Assembly (NCBI GenBank): GCA_034401795.1
Contig: CM067369.1
Location: forward strand, 140,876,496 to 140,940,495
Source of the DNA: Chaetoderma sp. LZ-2023a
Lineage: Eukaryota > Mollusca > Caudofoveata > Chaetodermatida > Chaetodermatidae
Length of the DNA stretch: 64,000 nucleotides
Direction of reading: 5' to 3'
This document shows, piece by piece, positions 1 to 54,950 of this stretch. Position 1 is the first letter of the stretch; every line of letters starts with the position of its first letter. Both the position numbers and the translations under genes were made by a program. A model generated the notes under the pieces. It saw only the letters and a list, made by a program, of their open reading frames with translations, ran no database searches and was not told the origin of the DNA.

Positions 1-3000
1 ATGGCAGGCCGGACGGAGAGACGGAAGGTCGGAGGGAGAGATGGAAGGCCGGAGAGAGAGATGGAAGGCCGGAGGGAGAGACGGAAGACCGGAGCGAGAG
101 ATGGCAGGCCGGAGGGAGAGATGGAAGGCCGGAGGGAGAGATGGAAGGCCGGAGGGAAAGATGGAAGGCCGGAGGGAAAGATGCCTTCCTTCCATCTTTC
201 CCTCCGGCCTTCCATCTTTCCCTATGTCCTTCCATCTTTCCCTCCGGCCTTCCATCTTTCCCTCCGGCCTACCATCTTTCCCTCCGGCCTTCCATCTTTC
301 CCTCCGGCCTTACATCTTTCCCTCCAGCCTTTCATCTTTCCCTCCAGCCTTCCATCTTTCCCTCCAGCCTTACATCTTTCCCTCCAGCCTTCCATCTTTC
401 CCTCCGGCTGGAAAGATGGAAGGCCGGAGGGAGAGACGGAAGGCCGGAGGGAGAGAGGGAAAGCCGGAGGGAGAGACGGAAGGCCGGAGGGAGAGACGGA
501 AGGCTGGAGGGAGAGACGGAAGGCCGGAGGGAGAGACGGAAGGCCGGATGGAGAGACGGAAGGCCGGAGGGAGAGCCGGAAGGCGGGAGGGAGAGACGGA
601 AGGCCGGAGGGAGAGACGGAAGGCCAGAGGGAGAGACGGAAGGACGGAGGGAGAGATGGCAGGCCGGAGGGAGAGATGGCAGGCCGGAGGGAGAGATGGA
701 AAGCCGGAGAGAGAGATGGAAGTCCGGAGGGAGAGATGGAAGGCTGGAGAGAGAGATGGAAGGCCGGAGGGAGAGATGGAATGCCGGAGGGAAAGATGCC
801 TTCCTTCCATCTTACCCTCCGGCCTTCCATCTTTCCCTCGGGCCTTCCATCTTTCCCTCCGGCCTTCCATCTTTCCCTCCGGCCCTCCATCTTTCCCTCT
901 GGCCTTCCATCTTTCCCTCCGGCTGGAAAGATGTAAGGCCGGAGGGAAAGATGGAAGGCCGGAGGGAAAGATGGAAGGCCGGAGGGAGAGACGGAAGGAC
1001 GGAGGGAGAGAGGGAAGGCCGGAGGGAGAGAGGGAAGGCCGGAGGGAGAGAGGGACGGCTGGAGGGAGAGACGGAAGGCCGGAGGGAGAGACGGAAGGCC
1101 GGAGGGAGAGACGGAAGGCCGGAGGGAGAGACGGAAGACCGGAGGGAGAGATGGAAGGCCGGAGGGAGAGCTGGAAGGCCGGAGGGAGAGATGGCAGGCC
1201 GGAGGGAGAGATGGCAGGCCGGAGGGAGAGATGGAAGGCCGGAGGGAGAGATGGAAGGCCGGAGGGAAAGATGCCTTCCTTCCATCTTTCCCTCCGGCCT
1301 TCCATCTTTCCCTCTGGAGGGAAAGACGGAAGGCTGGAGGGAAAGACGGAAGGCTGGCGGGAAAGATGGAAGGCTGAGGGAGAGACGGAAGGCCGGAGGG
1401 AGAGACGGAAGGCCGGAGGGAGAGACGGAAGGCCGGAGGGAGAGACGGAAGGCCGACGGGAGAGACAGAAGGCCGGAGGGAGAGACGGAAGGCCGGAGGG
1501 AGAGATGGAAAGCCGGAGGGAGAGATGGAAGTCCGGAGGGAGAGATGGAAGGCTGGAGAGAGAGATGGAAGGCCGGAGGGAGAGATGGAAGGCCGGAAGG
1601 AAAGATGCCTTCCTTCCATCTTACCCTCCGGCCTTCCATCTTTCCCTATGGCCTTCCATCTTTCCCTCCGGCCTACCATCTTTCCCTCCGGCCTTCCATC
1701 TTTCCCTCCGGCCTTCCATCTTTCCCTCCGGCCTTACATCTTTCCCTCCAGCCTTACATCTTTCCCTCCAGCTTTCTATCTTTCCCTCCATCCTTACATC
1801 TTTCCCTCCAGCCTTCCATCTTTCCCTCCGGCTGGAAAGATGGAAGGCCAGAGGGAGAGACGGAAGGCCGGAGGGAGAGACGGAAGGCCGGAGGGAGAGA
1901 TGGAAGGCCGGAGGGAGAGACAGAAGGCCGGAGGGAGAGATGGATGGCCGGAGGGAGAGACGGAAGGCCGGACGGAGAGACGGAAGGCCGGAGGGAGAGA
2001 CGGAAGGAAGGAGGGAGAGACGGAAGGATGGAGGGAGACACGGCAGGCCGGAGGGAGAGAGGGAAGGCCGGAGGGAGAGAGGGAAGGCTGGAGGGAGAGA
2101 CGGAAGGCCGGAGGGAGAGACGGAAGGCCGGAGGGAGAGACGGAAGGCCAGAGGGAGAGACGGAAGACCGGAGGGAGAGACGGAAGGCTGGAGGGAGAGA
2201 CGGAAGGCCGGAGGGAGAGACGGAAGGACGGAGGGAGAGAGGGAAGGCCGGAGGGAGAGAGGGAAGGCCGGAGGGAGAGACGGAAGGCCGGAGGGAGAGA
2301 CGGAAGGCCGAAGGGAGAGACGGAAGGCAAGAGGGAGAGACGGAAGGCCGGAGGGAGAGACGGAAGGCCGGAGGGAGAGACGGAAGGCCGGAGGGAGAGA
2401 CGGAAGATCGGAGGGAGAGATGGAAGGCTGGAGGGAGAGATGGAAGGCCGGAGGGAGAGATGGCAGGCCGGAGGGAGAGATGGAAGGCCGGAGGGAGAGA
2501 TGGAAGGCCGGAGGGAAAGATGGAAGGCCGGAGTGAAAGATGCCTTCCTTCCATCTTTCCCTCCGACCTTCCATCTTTCCCTCTGGAGGGAAAGACGGAA
2601 GGCCGGAGGGAAAGACGGAAGGCCGGAGGGAAAGACGGAATGCCGGAGGGAGAGATGGAAGTCCGGAGGGAAAGACGGAAGGCCGGAGGGAGAGACGGAA
2701 GGCCGGAGGGAGAGACGGAAGGCCGGAGGGAGAGACGGAAGGCCGGAGGGAGAGATGGAAGGCCGGAGGGAGAGATGGAAGGCCGGAGGGAAAGATGGAA
2801 GGCCGGAGGGAATGATGCCTTCCTTCCATCTTCCACTCCGGCCTTCCATCTTTCCATATGGCCTTCCATCTTTCCCTCCGGCCTACCATCTTTCCCTCCG
2901 GCCTTCCATCTTTCCCTCCGGCCTTCCATCTTTCCCTCCGGCCTTACATCTTTCCCTCCAGCCTTACATCTTTCCCTCCAGCCTTACATCTTTCCCTCCA

Positions 3001-6000
3001 GCCTTACATCTTTCCCTCCAGCCTTCCATTTTTCCCTCCAGACTTCCATAGTTCCCTCCAGCCTTCCATCTTTCCCTCTGGCTGGAAAGATGTAAGGCCG
3101 GAGGGAGAGACGGAAGGCCGGAGGGAGAGACGGAAGGCCGGAGCGAGAGATGGAAGGCCGGAGGGAGAGATGGCAGGCCGGAGGGAGAGATGGAAGGCTG
3201 GAGGGAGAGATGGAAGGCCGGAGGGAAAGATGGAAGGCCGGAGGGAAAGATGCCTTCCTTCCATCTTTCCCTCCGGCCTTCCATCTTTCCCTATGGCCTT
3301 CCATCTTTCCCTCCGGCCTTCCATCTTTCCCTCCGGCCTACCATCTTTCCCTCCGGCCATCCATCTTTCCCTCCGGCCTTCCATCTTTCCCTCCGGCCTT
3401 ACATCTTTCCCTCCAGCATTACATCTTTCCCTCCAGCCTTACATCTATCCCTCCAGGCTTACATCTTTCCCTCCAGCCTTCCATCTTTCCCTCCGGCTGG
3501 AAAGATAGAAGGCCGGAGGGAGAGACGGAAGGCCGGAGGGAGAGACGGAAGGAAGGAGGGAGAGACGGAAGGCCGGAGGGAGAGACGGGAGAGATGGAAG
3601 GCCGGAGGGAGAGCTGGAAGGCCGGAGGGAGAGAGGGAAGGCCGGATGGAGAGAGGGAAGGCTGGAGGGAGAGACGGAAGGCCGGAGGGAGAGACGGAAG
3701 GCCGGAGGGAGAGACGGAAGGCCGGAGGGAGAGACGGAAGACCGGAGGGAGAGATGGAAGGCCGGAGGGAGAGCTGGAAGGCCGGAGGGAGAGATGGCAG
3801 GCCGGAGGGAGAGATGGAAGGCCGGAGGGAAAGATGGAAGGCCGGAGGGAGAGACGGAAGGACGGAGGGAGAGAGGGAAGGCCGGAGGGAGAGAGGGAAG
3901 GCCGGACGGAGAGAGGGAAGGCTGGAGGGAGAGACGGAAGGCCGGAGGGAGAGACGGAAGGCCGGAGGGAGAGACGGAAGGCTGGAGGGAGAGACGGAAG
4001 ACCGGAGGGAGAGATGGAAGGCCGGAGGGAGAGCTGGAAGGCCGGAGGGAGAGATGGCAGGCCGGAGGGAGAGATGGAAGGCCGGAGGGAAAGATGGAAG
4101 GCCGGAGGGAGAGACGGAAGGACGGAGGGAGAGAGGAAAGACCGGAGGGAGAGAGGGAAGGCCGGAGGGAGAGAGGGAAGGCTGGAGGGAGAGACGGAAG
4201 GCCGGAGGGAGAGACGGAAGGGCGGAGGGAGAGACGGAAGGCCGGAAGGAGAGACGGAAGACCGGAGGGAGAGATGGAAGGCCGGAGGGAGAGCTGGAAG
4301 GCCGGAGGGAGAGATGGCAGGCCGGAGGGAGAGACGGAAGACCGGAGGGAGAGATGGAAAGCCGGAGGGAGAGCTGGAAGGCCGGAGGGAGAGATGGCAG
4401 GCCGGAGGGAGAGATGGAAGGCCGGAGGGAAAGATGGAAGGCCGGAGGGAGAGACGGAAGGACGGAGGGAGAGAGGGAAGGCCGGAGGGAGAGAGGGAAG
4501 GCCGGAGGGAGAGACGGAAGGCCGGAGGGAGAGACGGAAGGCAAGAGGGAGAGACGGAAGGCCGGAGGTAGAGACGGAAGGCCGGAGGGAGAGACGGAAG
4601 GCCGGAGGGAGAGACGGAAGATCGGAGGGAGAGATGGAAGGCTGGAGGGAGAGATGGAAGGCCGGAGGGAGAGATGGCAGGCCGGAGGGAGAGATGGAAG
4701 GCCGGAGGGAGAGATGGAAGGCCGGAGGGAAAGATGGAAGGCCGGAGGGAAAGAGGCCTTCCGTCCATCTTTCCCTCCGACGTTCCATCTTTCCCTCTGG
4801 AGGGAAAGACGGAAGGCCGGAGGGAAAGACGGAAGGCCGGAGGGAAAGGCGGAATGCCGGAGGGAGAGACGGAAGTCCGGAGGGAAAGACGGAAGGCCGG
4901 AGGGAGAGACGGAAGGCCGGAGGGAGAGACGGAAGGCCGGAGGGAGAGACGGAAGGCCGGAGGGAGAGATGGAAGGCCGGAGGGAGAGATGGAAGGCCGG
5001 AGGGAAAGATGGAAGGCCGGAGGGAATGATGCCTTCCTTCCATCTTTCCCTCCGACCTTCCATCTTTCCCTCTGGAGGGAAAGACGGAAGGCCGGAGGGA
5101 AAGACGGAAGGCCGGAGGGAAAGACGGAATGCCGGAGGGAGAGATGGAAGTCCGGAGGGAAAGACGGAAGGCCGGAGGGAGAGACGGAAGGCCGGAGGGA
5201 GAGACGGAAGGCCGGAGGGAGAGACGGAAGGCCGGAGGGAGAGATGGAAGGCCGGAGGGAGAGATGGAAGGCCGGAGGGAAAGATGGAAGGCCGGAGGCA
5301 ATGATGCCTTCCTTCCATCTTCCACTCCGGCCTTCCATCTTTCCCTATGGCCTTCCATCTTTCCCTCCGGCCTACCATCTTTCCCTCCGGCCTTCCATCT
5401 TTCCCTCCGGCCTTCCATCTTTCCCTCCGGCCTTACATCTTTCCCTCCAGCCTTACATCTTTCCCTCCAGCCTTACATCTTTCCCTCCAGCCTTACATCT
5501 TTCCCTCCAGCCTTCCATCTTTCCCTCCAGACTTCCATAGTTCCCTCCAGCCTTCCATCTTTCCCTCTGGCTGGAAAGATGTAAGGCCGGAGGGAGAGAC
5601 GGAAGGCCGGAGGGAGAGACGGAAGGCCGGAGCGAGAGATGGACGGCCGGAGGGAGAGATGGCAGGCCGGAGGGAGAGATGGAAGGCTGGAGGGAGAGAT
5701 GGAAGGCCGGAGGGAAAGATGGAAGGCCGGAGGGAAAGATGCCTTCCTTCCATCTTTCCCTCCGGCCTTCCATCTTTCCCTATGGCCTTCCATCTTTCCC
5801 TCCGGCCTTCCATCTTTCCCTCCGGCCTACCATCTTTCCCTCCGGCCATCCATCTTTCCCTCCGGCCTTCCATCTTTCCCTCCGGCCTTACATCTTTCCC
5901 TCCAGCATTACATCTTTCCCTCCAGCCTTACATCTATCCCTCCAGGCTTACATCTTTCCCTCCAGCCTTCCATCTTTCCCTCCGGCTGGAAAGATAGAAG

Positions 6001-8685
6001 GCCGGAGGGAGAGACGGAAGGCCGGAGGGAGAGACGGAAGGAAGGAGGGAGAGACGGAAGGCCGGAGGGAGAGACGGGAGAGATGGAAGGCCGGAGGGAG
6101 AGCTGGAAGGCCGGAGGGAGAGAGGGAAGGCCGGATGGAGAGAGGGAAGGCTGGAGGGAGAGACGGAAGGCCGGAGGGAGAGACGGAAGGCCGGAGGGAG
6201 AGACGGAAGGCCGGAGGGAGAGACGGAAGACCGGAGGGAGAGATGGAAGGCCGGAGGGAGAGCTGGAAGGCCGGAGGGAGAGATGGCAGGCCGGAGGGAG
6301 AGATGGAAGGCCGGAGGGAAAGATGGAAGGCCGGAGGGAGAGACGGAAGGACGGAGGGAGAGAGGGAAGGCCGGAGGGAGAGAGGGAAGGCCGGACGGAG
6401 AGAGGGAAGGCTGGAGGGAGAGACGGAAGGCCGGAGGGAGAGACGGAAGGCCGGAGGGAGAGACGGAAGGCTGGAGGGAGAGACGGAAGACCGGAGGGAG
6501 AGATGGAAGGCCGGAGGGAGAGCTGGAAGGCCGGAGGGAGAGATGGCAGGCCGGAGGGAGAGATGGAAGGCCGGAGGGAAAGATGGAAGGCCGGAGGGAG
6601 AGACGGAAGGACGGAGGGAGAGAGGAAAGGCCGGAGGGAGAGAGGGAAGGCCGGAGGGAGAGAGGGAAGGCTGGAGGGAGAGACGGAAGGCCGGAGGGAG
6701 AGACGGAAGGGCGGAGGGAGAGACGGAAGGCCGGAAGGAGAGACGGAAGACCGGAGGGAGAGATGGAAGGCCGGAGGGAGAGCTGGAAGGCCGGAGGGAG
6801 AGATGGCAGGCCGGAGGGAGAGACGGAAGACCGGAGGGAGAGATGGAAAGCCGGAGGGAGAGCTGGAAGGCCGGAGGGAGAGATGGCAGGCCGGAGGGAG
6901 AGATGGAAGGCCGGAGGGAAAGATGGAAGGCCGGAGGGAGAGACGGAAGGACGGAGGGAGAGAGGGAAGGCCGGAGGGAGAGAGGGAAGGCCGGAGGGAG
7001 AGACGGAAGGCCGGAGGGAGAGACGGAAGGCCGGAGGGAGAGACGGAAGGCCGGAGGGAGAGACGGAAGGCAAGAGGGAGAGACGGAAGGCCGGAGGTAG
7101 AGACGGAAGGCCGGAGGGAGAGACGGAAGGCCGGAGGGAGAGACGGAAGATCGGAGGGAGAGATGGAAGACTGGAGGGAGAGATGGAAGGCCGGAGGGAG
7201 AGATGGAAGGCCGGAGGGAGAGATGGCAGGCCGGAGGGAGAGATGGAAGGCCGGAGGGAAAGATGGAAGGCCGGAGGGAAAGATGCCTTCCTTCCATCTT
7301 TCCCTCCGACGTTCCATCTTTCCCTCTGGAGGGAAAGACGGAAGGCCGGAGGGAAAGACGGAAGGCCGGAGGGAAAGGCGGAATGCCGGAGGGAGAGACG
7401 GAAGTCCGGAGGGAAAGACGGAAGGCCGGAGGGAGAGACGGAAGGCCGGAGGGAGAGACGGAAGGCCGGAGGGAGAGACGGAAGGCCGGAGGGAGAGATG
7501 GAAGGCCGGAGGGAGAGATGGAAGGCCGGAGGGAAAGATGGAAGGCCGGAGGGAATGATGCCTTCCTTCCATCTTCCACTCCGGCCTTCCATCTTTCCCT
7601 ATGGCCTTCCATCTTTCCCTCCGGCCTACCATCTTTCCCTCCGGCCTTCCATCTTTCCCTCCGGCCTTCCATCTTTCCCTCCGGCCTTACATCTTTCCCT
7701 CCAGCCTTACATCTTTCCCTCCAGCCTTACATCTTTCCCTCCAGCCTTACATCTTTCCCTCCAGCCTTACATCTTTCCCTCCAGCCTTACATCTTTCCCT
7801 CCAGCCTTCCATCTTTCCCTCCAGCCTTCCATCTTTCCCTCCAGCCTTCCATAGTTCCCTCCAGCCTTCCATCTTTCCCTCTGGCTGGAAAGATGGAAGG
7901 CCGGAGGGAGAGACGGAAGGCCGGAGGGAGAGACGGAAGGCCGGAGCGAGAGATGGAAGGCCGGAGGGAGAGATGGCAGGCCGGAGGGAGAGATGGAAGG
8001 CTGGAGGGAGAGATGGAAGGCCGGAGGGAAAGATGGAAGGCCGGAGGGAAAGATGCCTTCCTTCCATCTTTCCCTCCGGCCTTCCATCTTTCCCTATGGC
8101 CTTCCATCTTTCCCTCCGGCCTTACATCTTTCCCTCCAGCATTACATCTTTCCCTCCAGCCTTACATCTATCCCTCCAGCCTTACATCTTTCCCTCCAGC
8201 CTTCCATCTTTCCCTCCGGCTGGAAAGATAGAAGGCCGGAGGGAGAGACGGAAGGCCGGAGGGAGAGACGGAAGGAAGGAGGGAGAGACGGAAGGCCGGA
8301 GGGAGAGACGGAAGACCGGAGGGAGAGATGGAAGGCCGGAGGGAGAGCTGGAAGGCCGGAGGGAGAGAGGGAAGGCCGGAGGGAGAGAGGGAAGGCTGGA
8401 GGGAGAGACGGAAGGCCGGAGGGAGAGACGGACGGCTGGAGGGAGAGATGGAAGCCGGGAGGGAGAGATGGAAGGCCGGAGGGAGAGATGGAAGGCCGGA
8501 GGGAGAGATGGCAGGCAGGAGGGAGAGATGGAAGGCCGGAGGGAGAGATGGAAGGCCGGAGGGAAAGATGGAAGGCCGGAGGGAAAGATGCCTTCCTTCC
8601 ATCTTTCCCTCCGGCCTTCCATCTTTCCCTCTGGAGGGAAAGACGGAAGGCCGGAGGGAAAGACAGAAGGCCGGAGGGAAAGACG
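1..8685. repeat. 20-bp satellite array, left part (inverted polarity)
   Basis: Continuous 20-bp monomers, purine-strand consensus GGAAGGCCGGAGGGAAAGAT, with variants at few fixed positions (GAGAGAC for AAAGAT, GGCTGG or GGCCAG for GGCCGG, GGCAGG). Orientation alternates: long purine-rich blocks (for example about 409-797, 1834-2540, 3499-4755, 5988-7284) are separated by pyrimidine-rich blocks (about 183-408, 1606-1833, 2816-3085, 5305-5572, 7559-7884). R-to-Y switches read GATGCCTTCCTTCC near 181, 796, 1270, 1605, 2540, 2815, 3250, 5029, 5304, 5740, 7284, 7558, 8052 and 8589. Y-to-R switches read CCGGCTGGAAAG or CCCTCTGGAGGG. Purine blocks are mostly GAGAGAC/GAGAGAT type and pyrimidine blocks mostly CTTTCC type, the mirror of the part after the first gap. 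The array continues off the left edge. Long open frames here are periodic (20-residue period) on both strands and are not taken as genes. Confidence 0.97.
2540..7557. repeat. Higher-order tandem duplication, about 2.49-2.53 kb period
   Basis: Variant monomers and block boundaries at 2540-5028 recur at 5029-7557. The offset is 2,489 bp at the start (short Y block at 2541/5030, hairpin-like block 2816-3085/5305-5572, rare GACGGGAGAGATGG junction near 3585/6075). It is 2,529 bp after about 4,550, so copy 2 has gained 40 bp, exactly two monomers. A third partial copy begins at 7558 with some blocks deleted. Copies look near-identical by eye, with scattered substitutions. Confidence 0.85.
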
Positions 8686-9185
8686 NNNNNNNNNNNNNNN
8701 NNNNNNNNNNNNNNNNNNNNNNNNNNNNNNNNNNNNNNNNNNNNNNNNNNNNNNNNNNNNNNNNNNNNNNNNNNNNNNNNNNNNNNNNNNNNNNNNNNNN
8801 NNNNNNNNNNNNNNNNNNNNNNNNNNNNNNNNNNNNNNNNNNNNNNNNNNNNNNNNNNNNNNNNNNNNNNNNNNNNNNNNNNNNNNNNNNNNNNNNNNNN
8901 NNNNNNNNNNNNNNNNNNNNNNNNNNNNNNNNNNNNNNNNNNNNNNNNNNNNNNNNNNNNNNNNNNNNNNNNNNNNNNNNNNNNNNNNNNNNNNNNNNNN
9001 NNNNNNNNNNNNNNNNNNNNNNNNNNNNNNNNNNNNNNNNNNNNNNNNNNNNNNNNNNNNNNNNNNNNNNNNNNNNNNNNNNNNNNNNNNNNNNNNNNNN
9101 NNNNNNNNNNNNNNNNNNNNNNNNNNNNNNNNNNNNNNNNNNNNNNNNNNNNNNNNNNNNNNNNNNNNNNNNNNNNNNNNNNNNN
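8686..9185. other. Assembly gap (500 N)
   Basis: Exactly 500 N inside the satellite; a round number indicates a placeholder, not a measured length. The compound-array polarity reverses across this gap. Confidence 0.99.
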
Positions 9186-10441
9186 GAAGGCCGGAGGGAA
9201 AGACGGAAGGCCGGAGGGAAAGACGGAAGGCCGGAGGGAGAGACGGAAGGCCGGAGGGAGAGACGGAAGGCCGGAGGGAAAGACGGAAGGCCGGAGGGAA
9301 AGATGGAAGGCCGGAGGGAAAGATGGAATGATGGAGGGAAAGATGGAAGGAAGGCATCTTTCCCTCCGGCCTTCCGTATTTCCCTCCGGCCTTCCTCTCT
9401 CCCTCCGGCCTTCCGTCTCTCCCTCCGGCCTTCCGTCTCTCCCTCCGGCCTTCCGTCTCTCCCTCCAGCCTTCCGTCTCTCCCTCCGGCCTTCTGTCTCT
9501 CCCTCTGGCCTTCCGGCTCTCCCTCCGGCCTTCTGTCTCTCCCTCCGGCCTTCCGTCTCTCCCTCCGGCCTTCCGTCTCCCCCCTCCGGCCTTCCGTCTC
9601 CCCCTCCGGCCTTCCGTCTCCCCCTCCGGCCTTCCATCTCTCTTTCCGGCCTTCCGTCTCTCCCTCCGGCCTTCCGTCTCTCCCTCCGGCCTTCCGTCTT
9701 TCCCTCCGGACTTCCGTCTCTCCCTCCGGCATTCCGTCTTTCCCTCCGGCCTTCCGTCTTTCCCTCCGGCCTTCCGTCTTTCCCTCCAGAGGGAAAGATG
9801 GAAGGTCGGAGGGAAAGATGGAAGGAAGGCATCTTTCCCTCCGGCCTTCCATCTTTCCCTCCGGCCTTCCATCTCTCCCTCCGGCCTTCCATCTCTCCCT
9901 CCGGCCTGCCATCTCTCCCTCCGGCATTCCATCTCTCCCTCCAGCCTTCCATCTCTCCCTCCGATCTTCCGCCTCTCCCTCCGGCCTTCGTCTCTCCCTC
10001 CGGCCTTCCGTCTCTGCCTCCGGCCTTCCGTCTCTCCCTCTTGCCTTCCGTCTCTCCCTCCAGCCTTCCGTCTCTCCCTCCGGCTTTCCGTCTCTCCCTC
10101 CGGCCTTCCCTCTCTCCCTCCGGCCTCCCTCTCTCCCTCCGTCCTTCCGTCTCTCCCTCCGGCCTTCCATCTCTCCCTCCAGCCTTCCATCTCTCCCTCC
10201 GGTCTTCCGTCTCTCCCTCTGGCCTTCCGTCTCTCCCTCCGGCCTTCCGTCTCTCCCTCCGGCCTTCCGTCTCTCCCTCCAGCCTTCCCTCTCTCCCTCC
10301 GGCCTTCCCTCTCTCCCTCCGGCCTGCCGTGTCTCCCTCCATCCTTTCGTCTCTCCCTCCGTCCTTCCGTCTCTCCCTCCGGCCTTCTGTCTCTCCCTCC
10401 GGCCTTCCGTCTCTCCCTCCGGCCATCCGTCTCTCCCTCCG

Positions 10442-31200: not shown

Positions 31201-31489
31201 TCTCTTTCCGGCCTTCCGTCTCTCCCTCCGGCCTTCCGTCTCTCCCTCCGGCCTTCCGTCTCTCCCTCCGGCCTTCCGTCTTTCCCTCTGGCCTTCCATC
31301 TTTCCAGCCGGCCTTCCATCTTTCCAGCCGGAGGGAAAGATGTAAGGCTGGAGGGAAAGATGTAAGGCTGGAGGGAAAGATGTAAGGCCGGAGGGAAAGA
31401 TGTAAGGCCGGAGGGAAAGATGGAAGGCCGGAGGGAAAGATGGAAGGCCAGAGGGAAAGATGGAATGCCGGAGGGAAAGATGGAAGGAA
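27192..31489. repeat. Nested tandem duplication, 2,149-bp period
   Basis: 27,192-29,340 recurs at 29,341-31,489 with a 2,149-bp offset. Shared markers are GGCATTTTTCC (about 27,232/29,381), the CCTCGGGCC monomer (about 28,401/30,550) and the doubled TTTCCAGCCGGCC end (about 29,155/31,304). Because 27.2-28.3 kb is also inside the 6,014-bp duplication, that stretch is present three times (from about 21.2, 27.2 and 29.3 kb). Confidence 0.88.
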
Positions 31490-41500: not shown

Positions 41501-41950
41501 TAAGGCCGGAGGGAAAGATGTAAGGCCGGAGGGAAAGATGGAAGGCCGGAGGGAAAGATGGAAGGCCGGAGGGAAAGATGGAAGGAAGGCATCTTTCCCT
41601 CTGGCCTTCTGTCTCCCCCTCCAGCCTTCCGTCTCCCCCTCCGGCCTTCCGTCTCTCTTTCCGGCCTTCCATCTCTCCCTCCGGCCTTCCGTCTCTCCCT
41701 CCGGCCTTCCATCTCTCCCTCCGGCCTTCCGTCTCTCCCTCCGGCTTTCCGTCTCTCCCTCCGGCCTTCCGTCTCTCCCTCCGTCCTTCCGTCGTTCCCT
41801 CCAGCCTTCCATCTCTCCCTCCGTCCTTCCGTCTCTCCCTCCGGCCTTCCGTCTCTCCCTCCGGCCTTCCGTCTCTCCCTCCGGCCTTTCATCTTTCCAG
41901 CCGGAGGGAAAGATGTAAGGCTGGAGGGAAAGATGTAAGGCCGGAGGGAA
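38536..41950. repeat. Higher-order tandem duplication, about 1.65-kb period
   Basis: The purine block starting at 38,536 recurs at 40,201 (offset 1,665), and later markers such as CCGGATGG at 39,011 recur at 40,656 (offset 1,645). The 20-bp difference is one monomer. Related block order continues to about 41.9 kb with lower regularity, so the outer limits are approximate. Confidence 0.65.
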
Positions 41951-42299
41951 AGATGTAAGGCCGGATGGAAAGATGTAAGGCCGGAGGGAAAGATGTAAGG
42001 CCGGAGGGAAAGATGTAAGGCCGGAGGGAAAGATGGAAGGCCAGAGGGAAAGATGGAAGGCCGGTGGGAAAGATGGAAGGAAGGCATCTTTCCCTCTGGC
42101 CTTCTGTCTCCCCCTCCAGCCTTCCGTCTCTCCCTCCGGCCTTCCGTCTCTCCCTCCGGCCTTCCGTCTCTCCCTCCGGCCTTCCGTCTCTCCCTCCGGC
42201 CTTCCGTCTCTCCCTCCGGCCTTCCGTCTCTCCCTCCGGCCTTCCGTCTCTCCCTCTGGCCTTCCGTCTCTCCCTCCGGCCTTCCATCTTTCCCTCCGG

Positions 42300-45200
42300 C
42301 CTTTCATCTTTCCAGCCGGAGGGAAAGATGTAAGGCTGGAGGGAAAGATGTAAGGCTGGAGGGAAAGATGTAAGGTCGGATGGAAAGATGTGAGGCCGGA
42401 GGGAAAGATGTAAGGCCGGAGGGAAAGATGTAAGGCCGGAGGGAAAGATGGAAGGCCGGAGGGAAAGATGGAAGGCTGGAGGGAAAGATGGAAGGAAGGC
42501 ATCTTTCCCTCTGGCCTTCTGTCTCTCCCTCCGGCCTTCCGTCCCTCCCTCCGGCCTTCCGTCTCTCCCTCCGGCCTTCTGTCTCTCCCTCCGGCCTTCC
42601 GTCTCTCCCTCCGGCCTTCCGTCTCTCCCTCCGGCCTTCCGTCTCTCCCTCAGGCTTTCCGTCTCTCACTCCGGCCTTCCGTCTCTCCCTCCGGCCTTCC
42701 GTCTCCCCCTCCGGCCATCCATCTCCCACTCCGGCCTTCCGTCTCTCCCTCCGGCCTTCCGTCTCTCCCTCCGGCCTTCCGTTTCCCCCTCCGGCCTGCC
42801 GTCTCCCCCTCCGGCCTTGCGTCTCCCCCTCCGGCCTTCCATCTCTCTTTCCGGCCTTCCGTCTCTCTTTACGGCCTTCCATCTCTCCCTCCGGCCTTCC
42901 ATCTCTCCCTCCGGCCTTCCGTCTCTCCCTCCGGCCTTCCGTCTCCCCCTCCAGCCTTCCGTCTCCCCCTCCGGCCTTCCGTCTCTCCCTCCGGCCTTCT
43001 GTCTCTCCCTCCGTCCTTCCGTCTCTCCCTCCAGCCTTCCGTCTCTCCCTCCGGCCTTCCATCTTTCCAGACGGAGGGAAAATGGAAGGCTGGAGGGAAG
43101 ATGTAAGGCCGGAGGGAAAGATGGAAGGAAGGCATCTTTCCCTCTGGCCTTCTGTCTCACCCTCCAGCCTTCCGTCTCCCCCTCCGGCCTTCCGTCTCTC
43201 TTTCCGGCTTTCCATCTCTCCCTCCGGCCTTCCGTCTCTCCCTCCGGCCTTCCGTCGTTCCCTCCGGCCTTCCATCTCTCCCTCCGTACTTCCGTCTCTC
43301 CCTCCGGCCTTCCGTCTCTCCCTCCGGCCTTCCGTCTCTCCCTCCGGCCTTCCATCTTTCCCTCCGGCCTTTCATCTTTCCAGCCGGAGGGAAAGATGTA
43401 AGGCTGGAGGGAAAGATGTAAGGCTGGAGGGAAAGATGTAAGGTCGGATGGAAAGATGTAATGCCAGAGGGAAAGATGTAAGGCCGGAGGGAAAGATGGA
43501 AGGCCGGAGGGAAAGATGGAAGGCCGGAGGGAAAGATGGAAGGCCGGAGGGAAAGATGGAAGGCCGGAGGGAAAGATGGAAGGAAGGCATCTTTCCCTCT
43601 GGCCTTCTGTCTCCCCCTCCAGCCTTCCGTCATCCCCTCCGGCCTTCCGTCTCTCTTTCCGGCCTTCCATCTCTCCCTCCGGCCTTCCGTCTCTCCCTCC
43701 GGCCTTCCGTCTCTCCCTCCGGCCTTCCGTCGTTCCCTCCGGCCTTCCATCTCCCCCTCCGTCCTTCCGTCTCTCCCTCCGGCCTTCCGTCTCTCCCTCC
43801 GGCCTTCCATCTTTCCCTCCGGCCTTTCATCTTTCCAGCCAGAGGGAAAGATGTAAGGCTGGAGGGAAAGATGTAAGGCTGGAGGGAAAGATGTAAGGTC
43901 GGATGGAAAGATGTAAGGCTGGAGGGAAAGATGTAAGGCCGGAGGGAAAGATGTAAGGCCGGAGGGAAAGATGGAAGGCCGGAGGGAAAGATGGAACGCT
44001 GGAGGGAAAGATGGAAGGAAGGCATCTTTCCCTCTGGCCTTCTGTCTCTCCCTCCGGCCTTCCGTCTCTCCCTCCGGCCTTCCGTCTCTCCCTCCGGCCT
44101 TCTGTCTCTCCCTCCGGCCTTCCGTCTCTCCCTCCGGCCTTCCGTCTCTCCCTCCGGCCTTCCGTCTCTCCCTCAGGCCTTCCGTCTCTCCCTCCGGCCT
44201 TCCGTCTCTCCCTCCGGCCTTCCGTCTCCCCTTCCGGCCTTCCATCTCCCACTCCGGCCTTCCGTCTCTCCCTCCGGCCTTCCGTCTCTCCCTCCGGCCT
44301 TCCGTTTCCCCCTCCGGCCTTCCGTCTCCCCCTCCGGCCTTCCGTCTCCCCCTCCGGCCTTCCATCTCTCTTTCCGGCCTTCCGTCTCTCTTTACGGCCT
44401 TCCATCTCTCCCTCCGGCCTTCCATCTCTCCCTCCGGCCTTCCGTCTCTCCCTCCGGCCTTCCGTCTCCCCCTCCACTTCCGTCTCCCCCTCCGGCCTTC
44501 CGTCTCTCCCTCCAGCCTTCCGTCTCTCCCTCCGTCCTTCCGTCTCTCCCTCCAGCCTTCCGTCTCTCCCTCCGGCTTTCCATCTTTCCAGACGGAGGGA
44601 AAATGGAAGGCTGGAGGGAAGATGTAAGGCCAGAGGGAAAGATGGAAGGAAGGCATCTTTCCCTCTGGCCTTCTGTCTCACCCTCCAGCCTTCCGTCTCC
44701 CCCTCCGGCCTTCCGTCTCTCTTTCCGGCCTTCCATCTCTCCCTCCGGCCTTCCGTCTCTCCCTCCGGCCTTCCGTCTCTCCCTCCGGCCTTCCGTCGTT
44801 CCCTCCGGCCTTCCATCTCCCCCTCCGTCCTTCCGTCTCTCCCTCCGGCCTTCCGTCTCTCCCTCCAGCCTTCCGTCTCTCCCTCCGGCCTTCCATCTTT
44901 CCAGACGGAGGGAAAATGGAAGGCTGGAGGGAAGATGTAAGGCCGGAGGGAAAGATGGAAGGAAGGCATCTTTCCCTCTGGCCTTCTGTCTCACCCTCCA
45001 GCCTTCCGTCTCCCCCTCCGGCCTTCCGTCTCTCTTTCCGGCCTTCCATCTCTCCCGCCGGCCTTCCGTCTCTCCCTCCGGCCTTCCGTCGTTCCCACCG
45101 GCCTTCCATCTCTCCCTCCGGCCTTCCGTCTCTCCCTCCGGCCTTCCGTCTCTCCCTCCGGCCTTCCGTCGTTCCCTCCGGCCTTCCATCTCTCCCTCCG

Positions 45201-48200
45201 GCCTTCCGTCTCTCCCTCCGGCCTTCCGTCTCTCCCTCCGGCCTTCCGTCGTTCCCTCGGGCCTTCCATCTCCCCCTCCGTCCTTCCGTCTCTCCCTCCG
45301 GCCTTCCGTCTCTCCCTCCGTCCTTCCGTCTCTCCCTCCGGCCTTCCATCTCTCCCTCCGGCCTTCCGTCTCTCCCTCCGGCCTTCTGTCTCTCCCTCAG
45401 GCCTTCCGTCTCTCCCTCCGGCCTTCCGTCTCTCCCTCCGGCCTTCCGTCTCCCCCTCCGGCCTTCCATCTCCCACTCCGGCCTTCCGTCTCTCCCTCCG
45501 GCCTTCCGTCTCTCCCTCCGGCCTTCCGTCTCTCCCTCCGGCCTTCCGTCTCTACCTCCGGCCTTCCGTCTCTCCCTCCGGCCTTCCGTCGTTCCCTCCG
45601 GCCTTCCGTCTCTCCCTCCGTCCTTTCATCTTTCCAGCCGGAGGGAAAGATGTAAGGCTGGAGGGAAAGATGTAAGGCTGGAGGGAAAGATGTAAGGCCG
45701 GATGGAAAGATGTAAGGCCGGAGGGAAAGATGTAAGGCCGGAGGGAAAGATGTAAGGCCGGAGGGAAAGATGGAAGGCCGGAGGGAAAGATGGAAGGCCG
45801 GAGGGAAAGATGGAAGGAAGGCATCTTTCCCTCTGGCCTTCTGTCTCCCCCTCCAGCCTTCCGTCTCCCCCTCCGGCCTTCCGTCTCTCTTTCCGGCCTT
45901 CCATCTCTCCCTCCGGCCTTCCGTCTCTCCCTCCGGCCTTCCGTCTCTCCCTCCGGCTTTCCGTCGTTCCCTCCGGCCTTCCATCTCCCCCTCCGTCCTT
46001 CCGTCTCTCCCTCCGGCCTTCCGTCTCTCCCTCCGGCCTTCCATCTTCCCCTCCGGCCTTTCATCTTTCCAGCTGGAGGGAAAGATGTAAGGCTGGAGGG
46101 AAAGATGTAAGGCTGGAGGGAAAGATGTAAGGTCGGATGGAAAGATGTAAGGCCGGAGGGAAAGATGTAAGGCCGGAGGGAAAGATGTAAGGCCGGAGGG
46201 AAAGATGGAAGGCCGGAGGGAAAGATGGAAGGCTGGAGGGAAAGATGGAAGGAAGGCATCTTTCCCTCTGGCCTTCTGTCTCTCCCTACGGCCTTCCGTC
46301 TCTCCCTCCGGCCTTCCGTCTCTCCCTCCGGCCTTCTGTCTCTCCCTCCAGCCTTCCGTCTCTCCCTCAGGCCTTCTGTCTCTCCTTCCGGCCTTCCGTC
46401 TCTCCCTCAGGCCTTCCGTCTCTCACTCCGGCCTTCCGTCTCTCCCTCCGGCCTTCCGTCTCCCCCTCCGGCCATCCATCTCCCACTCCGGCCTTCCGTC
46501 TCTCCCTCCGGCCTTCCGTCTCTCCCTCCGGCCTTCCGTTTCCCCCTCCGGCCTGCCGTCTCCCCCTCCGGCCTTCCGTCTCCCCCTCCGGCCTTCCATC
46601 TCTCTTTCCGGCCTTCCGTCTCTCTTTACGGCCTTCCATCTCTCCCTCCGGCCTTCCATCTCTCCCTCCGGCCTTCCGTCTCTCCCTCCGGCCTTCCGTC
46701 TCCCCCTCCAGCCTTCCGTCTCCCCCTCCGGCCTTCCGTCTCTCCCTCCGGCCTTCTGTCTCTCCCTCCGTCCTTCCGTCTCTCCCTCCAGCCTTCCGTC
46801 TCTCCCTCCGGCCTTCCATCTTTCCAGACGGAGGGAAAATGGAAGGCTGGAGGGAAGATGTAAGGCCGGAGGGAAAGATGGAAGGAAGGCATCTTTCCCT
46901 CTGGCCTTCTGTCTCACCCTCCAGCCTTCCGTCTCCCCCTCCGGCCTTCCGTCTCTCTTTCCGGCTTTCCATCTCTCCCTCCGGCCTTCCGTCTCTCCCT
47001 CCGGCCTTCCGTCGTTCCCTCCGGCCTTCCATCTCTCCCTCCGTACTTCCGTCTCTCCCTCCTGCCTTCCGTCTCTCCCTCCGGCCTTCCGTCTCTCCCT
47101 CCGGCCTTCCATCTTTCCCTCCGGCCTTTCATCTTTCCAGCCGGAGGGAAAGATGTAAGGCTGGAGGGAAAGATGTAAGGCTGGAGGGAAAGATGTAAGG
47201 TCGGATGGAAAGATGTAATGCCAGAGGGAAAGATGTAAGGCCGGAGGGAAAGATGGAAGGCCGGAGGGAAAGATGGAAGGCCGGAGGGAAAGATGGAAGG
47301 CCGGAGGGAAAGATGGAAGGCCGGAGGGAAAGATGGAAGGAAGGCATCTTTCCCTCTGGCCTTCTGTCTCCCCCTCCAGCCTTCCGTCATCCCCTCCGGC
47401 CTTCCGTCTCTCTTTCCGGCCTTCCATCTCTCCCTCCGGCCTTCCGTCTCTCCCTCCGGCCTTCCGTCTCTCCCTCCGGCCTTCCGTCGTTCCCTCCGGC
47501 CTTCCATCTCCCCCTCCGTCCTTCCGTCTCTCCCTCCGGCCTTCCGTCTCTCCCTCCGGCCTTCCATCTTTCCCTCCGGCCTTTCATCTTTCCAGCCAGA
47601 GGGAAAGATGTAAGGCTGGAGGGAAAGATGTAAGGCTGGAGGGAAAGATGTAAGGTCGGATGGAAAGATGTAAGGCTGGAGGGAAAGATGTAAGGCCGGA
47701 GGGAAAGATGTAAGGCCGGAGGGAAAGATGGAAGGCCGGAGGGAAAGATGGAACGCTGGAGGGAAAGATGGAAGGAAGGCATCTTTCCCTCTGGCCTTCT
47801 GTCTCTCCCTCCGGCCTTCCGTCTCTCCCTCCGGCCTTCCGTCTCTCCCTCCGGCCTTCTGTCTCTCCCTCCGGCCTTCCGTCTCTCCCTCCGGCCTTCC
47901 GTCTCTCCCTCCGGCCTTCCGTCTCTCCCTCAGGCCTTCCGTCTCTCCCTCCGGCCTTCCGTCTCTCCCTCCGGCCTTCCGTCTCCCCCTCCGGCCTTCC
48001 ATCTCCCACTCCGGCCTTCCGTCTCTCCCTCCGGCCTTCCGTCTCTCCCTCCGGCCTTCCGTTTCCCCCTCCGGCCTTCCGTCTCCCCCTCCGGCCTTCC
48101 GTCTCCCCCTCCGGCCTTCCATCTCTCTTTCCGGCCTTCCGTCTCTCTTTACGGCCTTCCATCTCTCCCTCCGGCCTTCCATCTCTCCCTCCGGCCTTCC

Positions 48201-50685
48201 GTCTCTCCCTCCGGCCTTCCGTCTCCCCCTCCAGCCTTCCGTCTCCCCCTCCGGCCTTCCGTCTCTCCCTCCAGCCTTCCGTCTCTCCCTCCGTCCTTCC
48301 GTCTCTCCCTCCAGCCTTCCGTCTCTCCCTCCGGCTTTCCATCTTTCCAGACGGAGGGAAAATGGAAGGCTGGAGGGAAGATGTAAGGCCGGAGGGAAAG
48401 ATGGAAGGAAGGCATCTTTCCCTCTGGCCTTCTGTCTCACCCTCCAGCCTTCCGTCTCCCCCTCCGGCCTTCCGTCTCTCTTTCCGGCCTTCCATCTCTC
48501 CCTCCGGCCTTCCGTCTCTCCCTCCGGCCTTCCGTCTCTCCCTCCGGCCTTCCGTCGTTCCCTCCGGCCTTCCATCTCCCCCTCCGTCCTTCCGTCTCTC
48601 CCTCCGGCCTTCCGTCTCTCCCTCCAGCCTTCCGTCTCTCCCTCCGGCCTTCCATCTTTCCAGACGGAGGGAAAATGGAAGGCTGGAGGGAAGATGTAAG
48701 GCCGGAGGGAAAGATGGAAGGAAGGCATCTTTCCCTCTGGCCTTCTGTCTCACCCTCCAGCCTTCCGTCTCCCCCTCCGGCCTTCCGTCTCTCTTTCCGG
48801 CCTTCCATCTCTCCCGCCGGCCTTCCGTCTCTCCCTCCGGCCTTCCGTCGTTCCCACCGGCCTTCCATCTCTCCCTCCGGCCTTCCGTCTCTCCCTCCGG
48901 CCTTCCGTCTCTCCCTCCGGCCTTCCGTCGTTCCCTCCGGCCTTCCATCTCTCCCTCCGGCCTTCCGTCTCTCCCTCCGGCCTTCCGTCTCTCCCTCCGG
49001 CCTTCCGTCGTTCCCTCCGGCCTTCCATCTCCCCCTCCGTCCTTCCGTCTCTCCCTCCGGCCTTCCGTCTCTCCCTCCGTCCTTCCGTCTCTCCCTCCGG
49101 CCTTCCATCTCTCCCTCCGGCCTTCCGTCTCTCCCTCCGGCCTTCCGTCTCTCCCTCAGGCCTTCCGTCTCTCCCTCCGGCCTTCCGTCTCTCCCTCCGG
49201 CCTTCCATCTCCCACTCCGGCCTTCCGTCTCTCCCTCCGGCCTTCCGTCTCTCCCTCCGGCCTTCCGTCTCTCCCTCCGGCCTTCCGTCTCTACCTCCGG
49301 CCTTCCGTCTCTCCCTCCGGCCTTCCGTCGTTCCCTCCGGCCTTCCGTCTCTCCCTCCGTCCTTTCATCTTTCCAGCCGGAGGGAAAGATGTAAGGCTGG
49401 AGGGAAAGATGTAAGGCTGGAGGGAAAGATGTAAGGCCGGATGGAAAGATGTAAGGCCGGAGGGAAAGATGTAAGGCCGGAGGGAAAGATGTAAGGCCGG
49501 AGGGAAAGATGGAAGGCCGGAGGGAAAGATGGAAGGCCGGAGGGAAAGATGGAAGGAAGGCATCTTTCCCTCTGGCCTTCTGTCTCCCCCTCCAGCCTTC
49601 CGTCTCCCCCTCCGGCCTTCCGTCTCTCTTTCCGGCCTTCCATCTCTCCCTCCGGCCTTCCGTCTCTCCCTCCGGCCTTCCGTCTCTCCCTCCGGCCTTC
49701 CGTCGTTCCCTCCGGCCTTCCATCTCCCCCTCCGTCCTTCCGTCTCTCCCTCCGGCCTTCCGTCTCTCCCTCCGGCCTTCCATCTTCCCCTCCGGCCTTT
49801 CATCTTTCCAGCTGGAGGGAAAGATGTAAGGCTGGAGGGAAAGATGTAAGGCTGGAGGGAAAGATGTAAGGTCGGATGGAAAGATGTAAGGCCGGAGGGA
49901 AAGATGTAAGGCCGGAGGGAAAGATGTAAGGCCGGAGGGAAAGATGGAAGGCCGGAGGGAAAGATGGAAGGCTGGAGGGAAAGATGGAAGGAAGGCATCT
50001 TTCCCTCTGGCCTTCTGTCTCTCCCTCCGGCCTTCCGTCTCTCCCTCCGGCCTTCCGTCTCTCCCTCCGGCCTTCTGTCTCTCCCTCCAGCCTTCCGTCT
50101 CTCCCTCAGGCCTTCCGTCTCTCCTTCCGGCCTTCCGTCTCTCCCTCAGGCCTTCCGTCTCTCACTCCGGCCTTCCGTCTCTCCCTCCGGCCTTCCGTCT
50201 CCCCCTCCGGCCATCCATCTCCCACTCCGGCCTTCCGTCTCTCCCTCCGGCCTTCCGTCTCTCCCTCCGGCCTTCCGTTTCCCCCTCCGGCCTGCCGTCT
50301 CCCCCTCCGGCCTTCCGTCTCCCCCTCCGGCCTTCCATCTCTCTTTCCGGCCTTCCGTCTCTCTTTACGGCCTTCCATCTCTCCCTCCGGCCTTCCATCT
50401 CTCCCTCCGGCCTTCCGTCTCTCCCTCCGGCCTTCCGTCTCCCCCTCCAGCCTTCCGTCTCCCCCTCCGGCCTTCCGTCTCTCCCTCCGGCCTTCTGTCT
50501 CTCCCTCCGTCCTTCCGTCTCTCCCTCCAGCCTTCCGTCTCTCCCTCCGGCCTTCCATCTTTCCAGACGGAGGGAAAATGGAAGGCTGGAGGGAAGATGT
50601 AAGGCCGGAGGGAAAGATGGAAGGAAGGCATCTTTCCCTCTGGCCTTCTGTCTCACCCTCCAGCCTTCCGTCTCCCCCTCCGGCC
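42300..50685. repeat. Higher-order tandem array, about 3.75-kb period, 2.2 copies
   Basis: 42,300-46,056 recurs at 46,057-49,795 and again from 49,796 until the gap at 50,686. The offset is 3,757 bp for most of the first copy and 3,739 bp for the next step, about one 20-bp monomer shorter. Shared private markers include GGTCGGATGG, the TCATCCCC monomer (43,631/47,388), CACCGGCC (45,096/48,855) and AGACGGAGGGAAAATGG junctions. The gap cuts the third copy, so more copies may be hidden there. Confidence 0.88.
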
Positions 50686-51185
50686 NNNNNNNNNNNNNNN
50701 NNNNNNNNNNNNNNNNNNNNNNNNNNNNNNNNNNNNNNNNNNNNNNNNNNNNNNNNNNNNNNNNNNNNNNNNNNNNNNNNNNNNNNNNNNNNNNNNNNNN
50801 NNNNNNNNNNNNNNNNNNNNNNNNNNNNNNNNNNNNNNNNNNNNNNNNNNNNNNNNNNNNNNNNNNNNNNNNNNNNNNNNNNNNNNNNNNNNNNNNNNNN
50901 NNNNNNNNNNNNNNNNNNNNNNNNNNNNNNNNNNNNNNNNNNNNNNNNNNNNNNNNNNNNNNNNNNNNNNNNNNNNNNNNNNNNNNNNNNNNNNNNNNNN
51001 NNNNNNNNNNNNNNNNNNNNNNNNNNNNNNNNNNNNNNNNNNNNNNNNNNNNNNNNNNNNNNNNNNNNNNNNNNNNNNNNNNNNNNNNNNNNNNNNNNNN
51101 NNNNNNNNNNNNNNNNNNNNNNNNNNNNNNNNNNNNNNNNNNNNNNNNNNNNNNNNNNNNNNNNNNNNNNNNNNNNNNNNNNNNN
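50686..51185. other. Assembly gap (500 N)
   Basis: Exactly 500 N inside the satellite; true length unknown. It interrupts the third copy of the 3.75-kb higher-order unit. Confidence 0.99.
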
Positions 51186-52356
51186 CTTCCGTCTCTCCCT
51201 CCGGCCTTCCGTCTCTCCCTCCGGCCTTCCGTCTCTCCCTCAGTCCTTCTGTCTCTCCCTCAGGCCTTCCGTCTCTCCCTCCGGCCTACCGTCTCTCCCT
51301 CCAGCCTTCCATCTCCCCCTCCGGCCTTCCGTCTCTCTTTCCGGCCTTCCGTCTCTCTTTCTGGCCTTCCATCTCTCCCTCCGGCCTTCCATCTCTCCCT
51401 CCGGCCTTCCATCACTCCCTCCGGCCTTCCGTCTCTCCCTCCGGCCTTCCGTCTCTCCTTCCGGCCTTCCGTCTCTCCCTCCAGCCTTCCATCTTTCCAG
51501 CCAGAAGGAAAGATGGAAGGCTGGAGGGAAAGATGTAAGGCTGGATGGAAAGATGTACGGCTGGAGGGAAAGATGGAAGGCCGGAGGGAAAGATGGAAGG
51601 CCAGAGGGAAAGATGGAAGGCCGGAGGGAAAGATGGAAGGCCGGAGGGAAAGATGGAATGCCGGAGGGAAAGATGGAAGGAAGGCATCTTTCCCTCCGGC
51701 GTTCCGTCTCTCCCTCCGGCCTTCCGTCTCTCCCTCCGGCCTTCCGTCTCTCCCTCCGGCCTTCTGTCTCTCCCTCCGGCCTTCCGTCTCTCCCTCCAGC
51801 CTTCCGTCTCTCCCTCAGGCTTTCCGTCTCTCCCTCCGGCCTTCCGTCTCCCCCTCCGGCCTTCCGTCTCCCCCTCCGGCCTTCCGTCTTTCCCTCCGGC
51901 CTTCCGTCTTTCCCTCCAGCCTTCCGTCTTTCCCTCCGGCCTTCCGTCTTTCCCTCCGGCCTTCCATCTTTCCCTCCGGCCTTCCATCTTTCCCTCCGAT
52001 CTTCCGTCTTTCCCTCCGATCTTCCATCTTTCCCTCCGGCCTTCCATCTTTCCAGCCGGAGGGAAAGATGTAAGGCTGGAGGGAAAGATGTAAGGCTGGA
52101 GGGAAAGATGGAAGGCCGGAGGGAAAGATGGAAGGCCGGAGGGAAAGATGGAAGGCCGGAGGGAAAGATGGAAGGCCGTAGGGAAGGATGGAAGGAAGGC
52201 ATCTTTCCCTCTGGCCTTCTGTCTCTCCCTCCGGCCTTCCGTCTCTCCCTCCGGCCTTCCATCTTTCCCTCCGGCCTTCCGTCTTTCCCTCCAGCCTTCC
52301 GTCTCTCCCTCCGGCCTTCCGTCTCTCCCTCTGGCCTTCCGTCTCTCCCTCCGGCT
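51186..52356. repeat. 20-bp satellite array, right terminal part
   Basis: Last array segment, with R-to-Y junctions near 51,680 and 52,192. The final Y block (CCGTCTCTCC monomers) ends abruptly within CCCTCCGGCTGG at about 52,356, and the next bases are ordinary AT-rich DNA. Terminal monomers do not look noticeably more degenerate than internal ones. Confidence 0.95.
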
Positions 52357-54919: not shown

Positions 54920-54950
54920 TGATCAAAATTTGACATTAAAATAAAATTTC

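What the first reader, a model, noticed from the sequence alone, without database searches (positions are those of the whole stretch)
1..52356. A satellite over 50 kb long that switches strand about every 0.6 kb
The array is a single 20-bp monomer family, but blocks of purine-strand and pyrimidine-strand orientation alternate throughout (by hand count about 15 R-to-Y switches in the first 8.7 kb and about 72 in the remaining 43 kb). Ordinary satellites run head-to-tail. This one forms a continuous chain of inverted arms of 100-1,000 bp, each able to pair with its neighbour. I do not recognise this satellite.
Basis: seen in the sequence. Interest (0 to 1): 0.72.

Follow-up and report, generated by a model that had tools for sequence, protein, structure and literature searches.

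The report
Strand-alternating satellite built from palindromic units
A long stretch of repeated DNA flips strand every few hundred bases because its real repeating unit is a pair of opposite-facing arms that has been copied head-to-tail, a new twist on a known type of repeat and not a new kind of gene.

Summary
A 20-bp monomer fills window 1-52,355 and changes strand 174 times: 87 R-to-Y (15 before 8.7 kb, 72 after, as reported) and 87 Y-to-R. The window hides three 500-N gaps, but a gap-free 83-kb piece upstream, other loci and an unplaced contig alternate too. A mirror test argues against fold-back reads.

The switches are not 174 separate events. One junction sequence (J1) accounts for 86 of 87 R-to-Y switches and two (J2a, J2b) for 75 of 87 Y-to-R; random breakpoints give 0.1% and 3%. 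Each is a short palindrome. J1 is asymmetric, and its direction is nearly constant within each assembled piece. The unit is therefore [A arm][J1][inverted B arm][J2], mean 0.58 kb in the window, running head-to-tail. A and B arms carry different diagnostic bases. Direct duplications with lags of about 1-6 kb spread the pattern. Every place listed lies on C1, C11 or one unplaced contig.

Best reading: a non-coding, possibly pericentromeric satellite whose strand switching is an old inversion amplified as a passenger. Closest known: Tribolium macro-dyad satellites and Chionographis Chio repeats. No selected function is shown.

The parts
1..52355 (.). satellite array, 20-bp monomer GGAGGGA(A/G)AGA(T/C)GGAAGGC(C/T), 87 R-to-Y and 87 Y-to-R strand switches, three N gaps
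1..8685 (+). part with J1 in + direction (A arms purine on +): right end of an exactly 25,000-bp scaffold piece
8686..9185 (.). 500-N scaffold gap; unit direction reverses here; monomer phase is continuous across it
9186..32185 (-). 23,000-bp piece, J1 in - direction (36 of 36)
32186..32685 (.). 500-N scaffold gap
32686..50685 (-). 18,000-bp piece, J1 in - direction (34 of 34)
50686..51185 (.). 500-N scaffold gap
410..798 (+). example A arm (389 bp, mostly GAGAGACGG- and GAGAGATGG-type monomers)
789..816 (+). example J1 junction, inverted repeat around the 9-nt loop CCTTCCTTC (this copy has one mismatch in the right stem)
799..924 (-). example B arm (126 bp, AAAGATG-type monomers), inverted relative to the A arm
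908..933 (+). example J2a junction CATCTTTCCCTCCGGCTGGAAAGATG (8-nt loop)
1306..1325 (+). example J2b junction CTTTCCCTC TG GAGGGAAAG (2-nt loop)
16170..28326 (.). direct duplication of a multi-arm segment, lag 6,014 bp, about 99% identical
42098..50685 (.). region with direct duplications at lags 3,757 and 3,739 bp, about 98% identical
52351..52358 (+). array/flank joint CCGGCTGG: the Y arm stops where a J2a junction would switch strand; CTGG is shared with the array-less copies of the flank

Best explanation
This is a non-coding composite (higher-order) satellite. Its unit is A arm, J1 palindrome, inverted B arm, J2 palindrome, mean 0.58 kb in the window. SHOWN: three recurrent junction families explain 161 of 174 switches; units point one way within most of each assembled piece; A and B arms carry different diagnostic bases; multi-arm segments are directly duplicated; arm lengths fall mainly in a few classes modulo 20. 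INFERRED: a head-to-tail 20-bp satellite was inverted once or a few times at short interrupted inverted repeats, most simply by fold-back or template switching during replication or repair. The inverted pair was then amplified head-to-tail by unequal exchange or replication slippage. Exchange acts mainly between same-strand arms, so A and B drifted apart. The alternation is a passenger of amplification; hairpins or cruciforms in cells are possible but unproven.
For: Window: J1 86 of 87 R-to-Y; J2a 63 plus J2b 12 = 75 of 87 Y-to-R (up to 3 mismatches). Control: 2,000 random breakpoints of each kind give 0.1% and about 3%. The gap-free 83-kb piece f0: 136 of 154 and 141 of 154. Majority J1 direction: 130 of 136, 41 of 44, 36 of 36, 34 of 34 classified; 21 R-to-Y switches of f0 and f1 are unclassified. 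Window A arms have G at monomer base 8 in 86% and C at base 12 in 70%; B arms 7% and 10%; the G contrast recurs in 5 of 8 other loci. Mean mismatches per 20: A-A 2.18, B-B 2.35, A-B 3.15. Ungapped scan for 600-bp windows above 95%: direct pairs 136, 20, 6, 21 in f0, f1, f2, f3; inverted 26, 0, 0, 0 (each counted from both sides; longest listed 763 bp). Rare bases are shared more by same-strand than opposite-strand pairs in all 31 distance bins. Junctions also occur at C1:108 Mb, where neither arm has the G base (7 arms each), and in a 779-bp island at C11:123.49 Mb, so junctions may predate the A/B split.
Against: Outside the four diagnostic bases, opposite-strand monomers are no more different than same-strand ones (about 1.0-1.1 per 16 in both; in f3 opposite-strand pairs are closer), so A/B divergence rests on few sites. 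In f1 the rare-base contrast is small, and opposite-strand pairs at 300-600 bp (0.017) exceed same-strand pairs at 10-20 kb (0.015). f0 holds both J1 directions and the 26 inverted long matches, so some later inversions happened. At C11:138.84 Mb the G-type sits on the other side of J1 (62% against 6%, 10 arms each), so arm identity is not fixed across arrays. 13 of 174 window switches are unclassified. The first four monomers on each side of J1 resemble their mirror partners more (2.4-2.7 mismatches) than later ones (3.4-3.8), so some exchange across J1, or a younger palindrome core, is possible. Rank from J1 predicts similarity only modestly (A 2.04 against 2.16; B 1.92 against 2.19). No reads, no second species, no chromatin data.
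Confidence: 0.77

Rival explanations
1. Selected dyad structure: the alternation is kept because arms form hairpins or cruciforms that help pericentromeric or centromeric chromatin, as proposed for Tribolium macro-dyads.
For: The largest clusters listed lie at C11:138.8-141.1 Mb, near the midpoint (138.96 Mb) of the largest chromosome. Strong folding of two stretches. The common junctions are short-loop palindromes. The Tribolium madens paper reports conserved inversion sites.
Against: Every listed place is on 2 of 17 chromosome-sized contigs or one unplaced contig, which does not fit a general centromere satellite, though some lists were cut. J1 copies diverge 2.7% per base against 3.4-3.5% for non-diagnostic arm bases, no strong sign of constraint. 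The centromere position of C11 is unknown.
Confidence: 0.15
2. Foldback-transposon origin: the unit descends from an element with long inverted repeats made of 20-bp subrepeats, comparable with Tetris in Drosophila virilis, later amplified as a satellite.
For: A lone 779-bp island at C11:123.49 Mb carries J2a, J1 and J2a and begins and ends with inverted copies of the monomer. Tetris shows that foldback elements can seed satellites.
Against: No target-site duplication seen by eye around that one island. Listed islands are on C1 and C11 only. No element ends recognised.
Confidence: 0.1
3. Assembly artefact: fold-back read chimeras or scaffold flips create the alternation.
For: Three 500-N gaps in the window; pieces of exactly 25,000, 23,000 and 18,000 bp; unit direction reverses at gap 1.
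Against: 0 of 192 R-to-Y and 0 of 183 Y-to-R junctions that have three whole monomers on both sides (of 273 each in the 152 kb) have three identical mirrored monomers. A gap-free 83-kb piece alternates (308 switches). Unplaced contig C1009 and other C11 and C1 loci use the same junctions. The array/flank joint recurs at a second place at the same base.
Confidence: 0.04
4. Many independent inversions inside an ordinary satellite, for example through ongoing recombination between inverted arms.
For: A few reversed units in pieces f0 and f1; mixed directions at C11:138.84 Mb (J1 4 - and 6 +, 6 others).
Against: Independent breakpoints would rarely match the junction families (0.1% and 3%), yet 161 of 174 window switches do.
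Confidence: 0.04

Closest known systems
Tribolium madens TmSat1/TmSat2 macro-dyad satellites (PMC13081366, abstract and passages seen)
   Same: Satellite arrays with inverted subarrays and conserved inversion sites; the 704-bp TmSat2 monomer is palindrome-like, with inverted repeats of about 300 bp
   Different: About 110-bp basic unit, subarrays of several kb, mostly two per array, regions on all chromosomes; here a 20-bp monomer, arms of about 0.3 kb in long chains, listed places on C1, C11 and one unplaced contig, arms with strand-linked sub-types
Chio1/Chio2 of Chionographis japonica (PMC10264360, abstract and passages seen)
   Same: Short (23 and 28 bp) monomers, mixture of forward and reverse arrays, predicted hairpins between neighbours
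   Different: CENH3-associated, 100 units in the assembly; the passages seen report no fixed two-arm unit with recurrent junctions; centromere role here untested
Tetris foldback element and TIR-220 satellite of Drosophila virilis (PMC4079207, abstract and passages seen)
   Same: Inverted repeats that contain tandem repeats, linked to satellite growth
   Different: About 220-bp repeats, a transposon with defined ends; no element ends or target duplication recognised here (one island looked at)
Inverted junctions at short interrupted inverted repeats in yeast, ODIRA model (PMC10766183, abstract and passages seen)
   Same: Inversion junctions sit at short interrupted inverted repeats
   Different: New yeast amplicons; by that paper repeats less than 40 bp apart, as with the 2-9-nt loops here, tend to form a hairpin on one strand, so a fold-back may fit better than a leading/lagging switch

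Membership tests
satellite DNA with inverted subarrays (macro-dyad type) | long tandem array of one monomer family | tested here: met
satellite DNA with inverted subarrays (macro-dyad type) | blocks of opposite orientation with conserved inversion sites | tested here: met
   161 of 174 window switches in three junction families
satellite DNA with inverted subarrays (macro-dyad type) | multi-kb, roughly symmetrical subarrays | tested here: not met
   window arms 41-1,428 bp, A arms mean 372, B arms mean 207
higher-order repeat satellite | multi-monomer unit repeated in one direction with high identity | tested here: met
   direct lags 6,014 (about 99%), 2,171 and 3,757 bp; unit length varies, so only in the loose sense
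centromeric satellite | associated with CENP-A nucleosomes | not testable with these tools
   no chromatin data
centromeric satellite | present on most chromosomes | tested here: inconclusive
   listed places on C1, C11 and unplaced C1009 only, but searches list only about 100 of 2,907 and 386 places, and one search scored 3 of 232 candidates
foldback transposon | fixed ends and target-site duplication | tested here: inconclusive
   one lone island read by eye, no duplication seen
read or scaffold artefact | arms mirror each other exactly, or switches only at gaps | tested here: not met

The most novel reading that the evidence does not exclude
The junction palindromes are the engine, not the scar: J1 and J2 repeatedly fold back during replication, so the array propagates as paired arms, and the strand-linked sub-types show that one satellite can hold two separately evolving repeat populations, one per strand, interleaved every 0.3 kb.
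Probability: 0.12. Interest if true: 0.75.

Novelty: new variant of a known kind. Interest (0 to 1): 0.43.

Why it matters
It offers a natural test of how satellites stay uniform. Unequal exchange needs copies in the same direction; gene conversion need not. Here same-strand monomers 10-20 kb apart share more rare bases than opposite-strand neighbours under 300 bp apart (clear in three of four pieces, slight in f1), which points to direction-dependent exchange. The array also shows how an inverted pair can be amplified into a long strand-alternating satellite, and it warns that scaffold direction inside such arrays may be wrong.

Tried and rejected
Fold-back chimeras: tested and not supported. 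Protein coding: the long open frames follow from stop-poor monomers (48-93 stops per 17,451 codons in each of six frames); no other coding test was made. Monomer strings in print: 0 papers for four strings. A six-term search on satellite orientation gave one unrelated paper. The array-less flank copies at C11:138.69 and 139.06 Mb were tried as an empty site: the 27-bp pattern from their left side has 20 places (up to 3 mismatches), so they show a shared breakpoint but not which state is older. A BLAST self-comparison timed out and was replaced by a diagonal scan.
Full report
What is there. The window is C11:140,876,496-140,940,495 of an unnamed 2.44-Gb assembly with 2,753 contigs. C1-C17 are chromosome-sized and together hold 2,322 Mb; C11, 277.9 Mb, is the largest. 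Positions 1-52,355 are a satellite with a 20-bp monomer. A two-strand hidden-Markov decomposition finds 87 R-to-Y and 87 Y-to-R switches, 15 of the former before the first gap. The array goes on to the left: C11:140,776,496-140,928,850 is satellite apart from four 500-N gaps, with 546 switches; its left end was not reached.

Gaps. Three gaps lie in the window and one in the fetched part upstream. Pieces between gaps measure exactly 25,000, 23,000 and 18,000 bp. Round sizes and 500-N spacers look like cuts by a Hi-C scaffolder (recalled: 3D-DNA uses 500 N). Monomer phase is continuous across window gap 1, off by one base at window gap 3, and not continuous at window gap 2 or at the upstream gap. 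So the joint at gap 1 may be original, including its change of direction; the reverse complement of the piece before gap 1 matches the piece after it over 1,210 bp at 95%, and no direct match of that kind exists between them. The other joints are unproven.

Junctions. With up to 3 mismatches, one J1 sequence explains 86 of 87 R-to-Y switches in the window, and J2a (63) plus J2b (12) explain 75 of 87 Y-to-R. Random breakpoints between arms fit in 0.1% and about 3% of 2,000 trials each. Each family is an inverted repeat: commonest loops are 9 nt at J1 and 8 or 2 nt at J2. J1 is asymmetric, which gives each unit a direction. J1 direction (-: +) is 130:6, 3:41, 36:0 and 34:0 in f0 (83 kb upstream), f1 (25 kb), f2 (23 kb) and f3 (18 kb), with 18, 3, 0 and 0 R-to-Y switches unclassified. 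One search, with stricter text patterns, gave 130:4, 3:37, 36:0 and 34:0 and 27 unclassified. The unit is [A][J1][inverted B][J2]; in the window A arms average 372 bp and B arms 207 bp. Arm lengths fall mainly in a few classes modulo 20: of 177 window arms, 48 are Y with remainder 9 and 46 are R with remainder 6. This suggests growth and loss by whole monomers between fixed junctions.

Arms. In the 152 kb, A and B arms (245 each) differ mainly at four monomer bases: G at base 8 is 81% in A and 11% in B, C at base 12 is 61% and 12%, T at base 14 is 1% and 28%, T at base 20 is 12% and 33%. The arms are not mirror copies: mirrored monomers differ by 2.4-3.8 per 20 bases, and none of 192 (R-to-Y) or 183 (Y-to-R) testable junctions, of 273 each, had its first three mirrored monomers identical. 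This speaks against fold-back reads. The first four monomers beside J1 are closer to their mirror partners (2.4-2.7) than later ones (3.4-3.8).

Spread. Direct long copies dominate: lags of 6,014 (about 99%), 2,171 (98.8%), 2,149, 2,489, 3,757 bp and others. An ungapped, seeded scan for 600-bp windows above 95% found 136, 20, 6 and 21 direct pairs in f0, f1, f2 and f3, and 26, 0, 0 and 0 inverted pairs, the latter counted from both sides. Between these four pieces it found only inverted pairs, 8 for f0-f1 and 18 for f1-f2, in keeping with the opposite direction of f1. The alternation is carried along by head-to-tail duplication of segments that hold several arms.

Where else. The exact monomer has 2,907 places and the first ones listed are on C1. 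Exact J1 has 386 places (111 +, 275 -); the 100 listed are on C1 and C11. A longer J1 variant has 32 places, 28 on C11 and 4 on unplaced C1009. A J2 variant absent from the 152 kb has 25 places, all on C1 and C11. A DNA search scored 3 of 232 candidates, and its 148 matches are on C11. So nothing was seen elsewhere, but the lists are partial. Of eight other loci decomposed, five show the same G contrast between A and B arms (C11:139.34, 0.80/0.15; C11:139.40, 0.69/0.18; C1009, 0.93/0.19; the copy at C11:141.08, 0.70/0.00; C1:114.35, 0.83/0.00), C11:138.84 shows it reversed (0.06/0.62), and C1:108 and C11:123.49 have no G in either arm. The last two carry J1 and J2 all the same. The simplest order is junctions first, arm sub-types later; this is inference from few loci.

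Boundary. The array ends at 52,355 where a J2a junction would switch strand, CCGGCTGG, followed by non-satellite DNA. The same joint occurs inverted at C11:141,077 kb (array end plus flank 99.5% identical over 1,879 bp). Two further copies of the flank (98%) at 138.69 and 139.06 Mb lack the array and read CCTACTGG before the same base. The array ends of the two joined copies match for about 520 bp (99.7% and 98.8%, with a 20-bp difference between) and then differ by larger blocks, a sign of fast turnover or of two haplotypes.

Homogenisation. Rare bases (under 5%) are shared more by same-strand than by opposite-strand pairs in all 31 distance bins tested, by factors of 1.2 to about 15 (f0 was limited to its first 60 kb). 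Same-strand monomers 10-20 kb apart share 0.027, 0.015, 0.024 and 0.015 in f0, f2, f3 and f1; opposite-strand neighbours under 300 bp share 0.012, 0.003, 0.011 and 0.012. In f1 opposite-strand pairs at 300-600 bp reach 0.017. Outside the four diagnostic bases the mean mismatch is about the same in both groups. Pairs are not independent and no error bars were computed.

Function. Two stretches fold as single-stranded DNA far better than shuffles, so pairing is possible. J1 copies are slightly less diverged than non-diagnostic arm bases (2.7% against 3.4-3.5%; J1 copies were pre-selected at 8 or fewer mismatches, 259 of 273), so there is no clear sign of selection. The place near the C11 midpoint suggests, but does not show, a pericentromeric site.

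Comparison. Tribolium madens satellites form macro-dyad symmetries with conserved inversion sites, and TmSat2 is palindrome-like (PMC13081366, abstract and passages). Chio1/2 are 23- and 28-bp repeats in mixed orientation (PMC10264360, abstract and passages). Tetris links foldback elements to satellites (PMC4079207, abstract and passages). Inverted junctions at short interrupted inverted repeats are known in yeast (PMC10766183, abstract and passages). The present array is a new variant: very short monomer, dense switching, recurrent asymmetric junctions and strand-linked sub-types.

Noticed in passing
window 61027-63580: Retroelement remains: reverse transcriptase pieces (PF00078, E 4e-10 and 3e-7) in different frames. 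A DIRS-type element is suspected from recall, but Pfam found no recombinase in the one reverse-strand frame tried.
   Followed up: partly
window 52357-60300: The flank is rich in short near-perfect palindromes, seemingly of at least two families (38 inverted pairs of 24 nt or more within 1.5 kb over 52357-64000); perhaps miniature inverted-repeat elements.
   Followed up: partly
window 57256-57346: Tandem repeat of 21 bp, GAAATGGGCGGGGCATAACTA, 4.3 copies; related words recur elsewhere in the flank (by eye).
   Followed up: no
C11:138,686,870; 139,058,817; 140,928,846; 141,076,990: Four near-identical copies of the same flank on C11, one inverted: segmental duplications or unmerged haplotypes around the array.
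   Followed up: partly
window 43072-43128 and six similar places to 50624: Short R arms with a 19-bp period (one base lost per monomer), recurring at the duplication lags.
   Followed up: no
L023-L032, C1:108,064,265-108,095,814: The C1 array has one 8.5-kb R arm and four stretches of 384-1,571 bp that do not match the monomer, two of them 418 bp.
   Followed up: no
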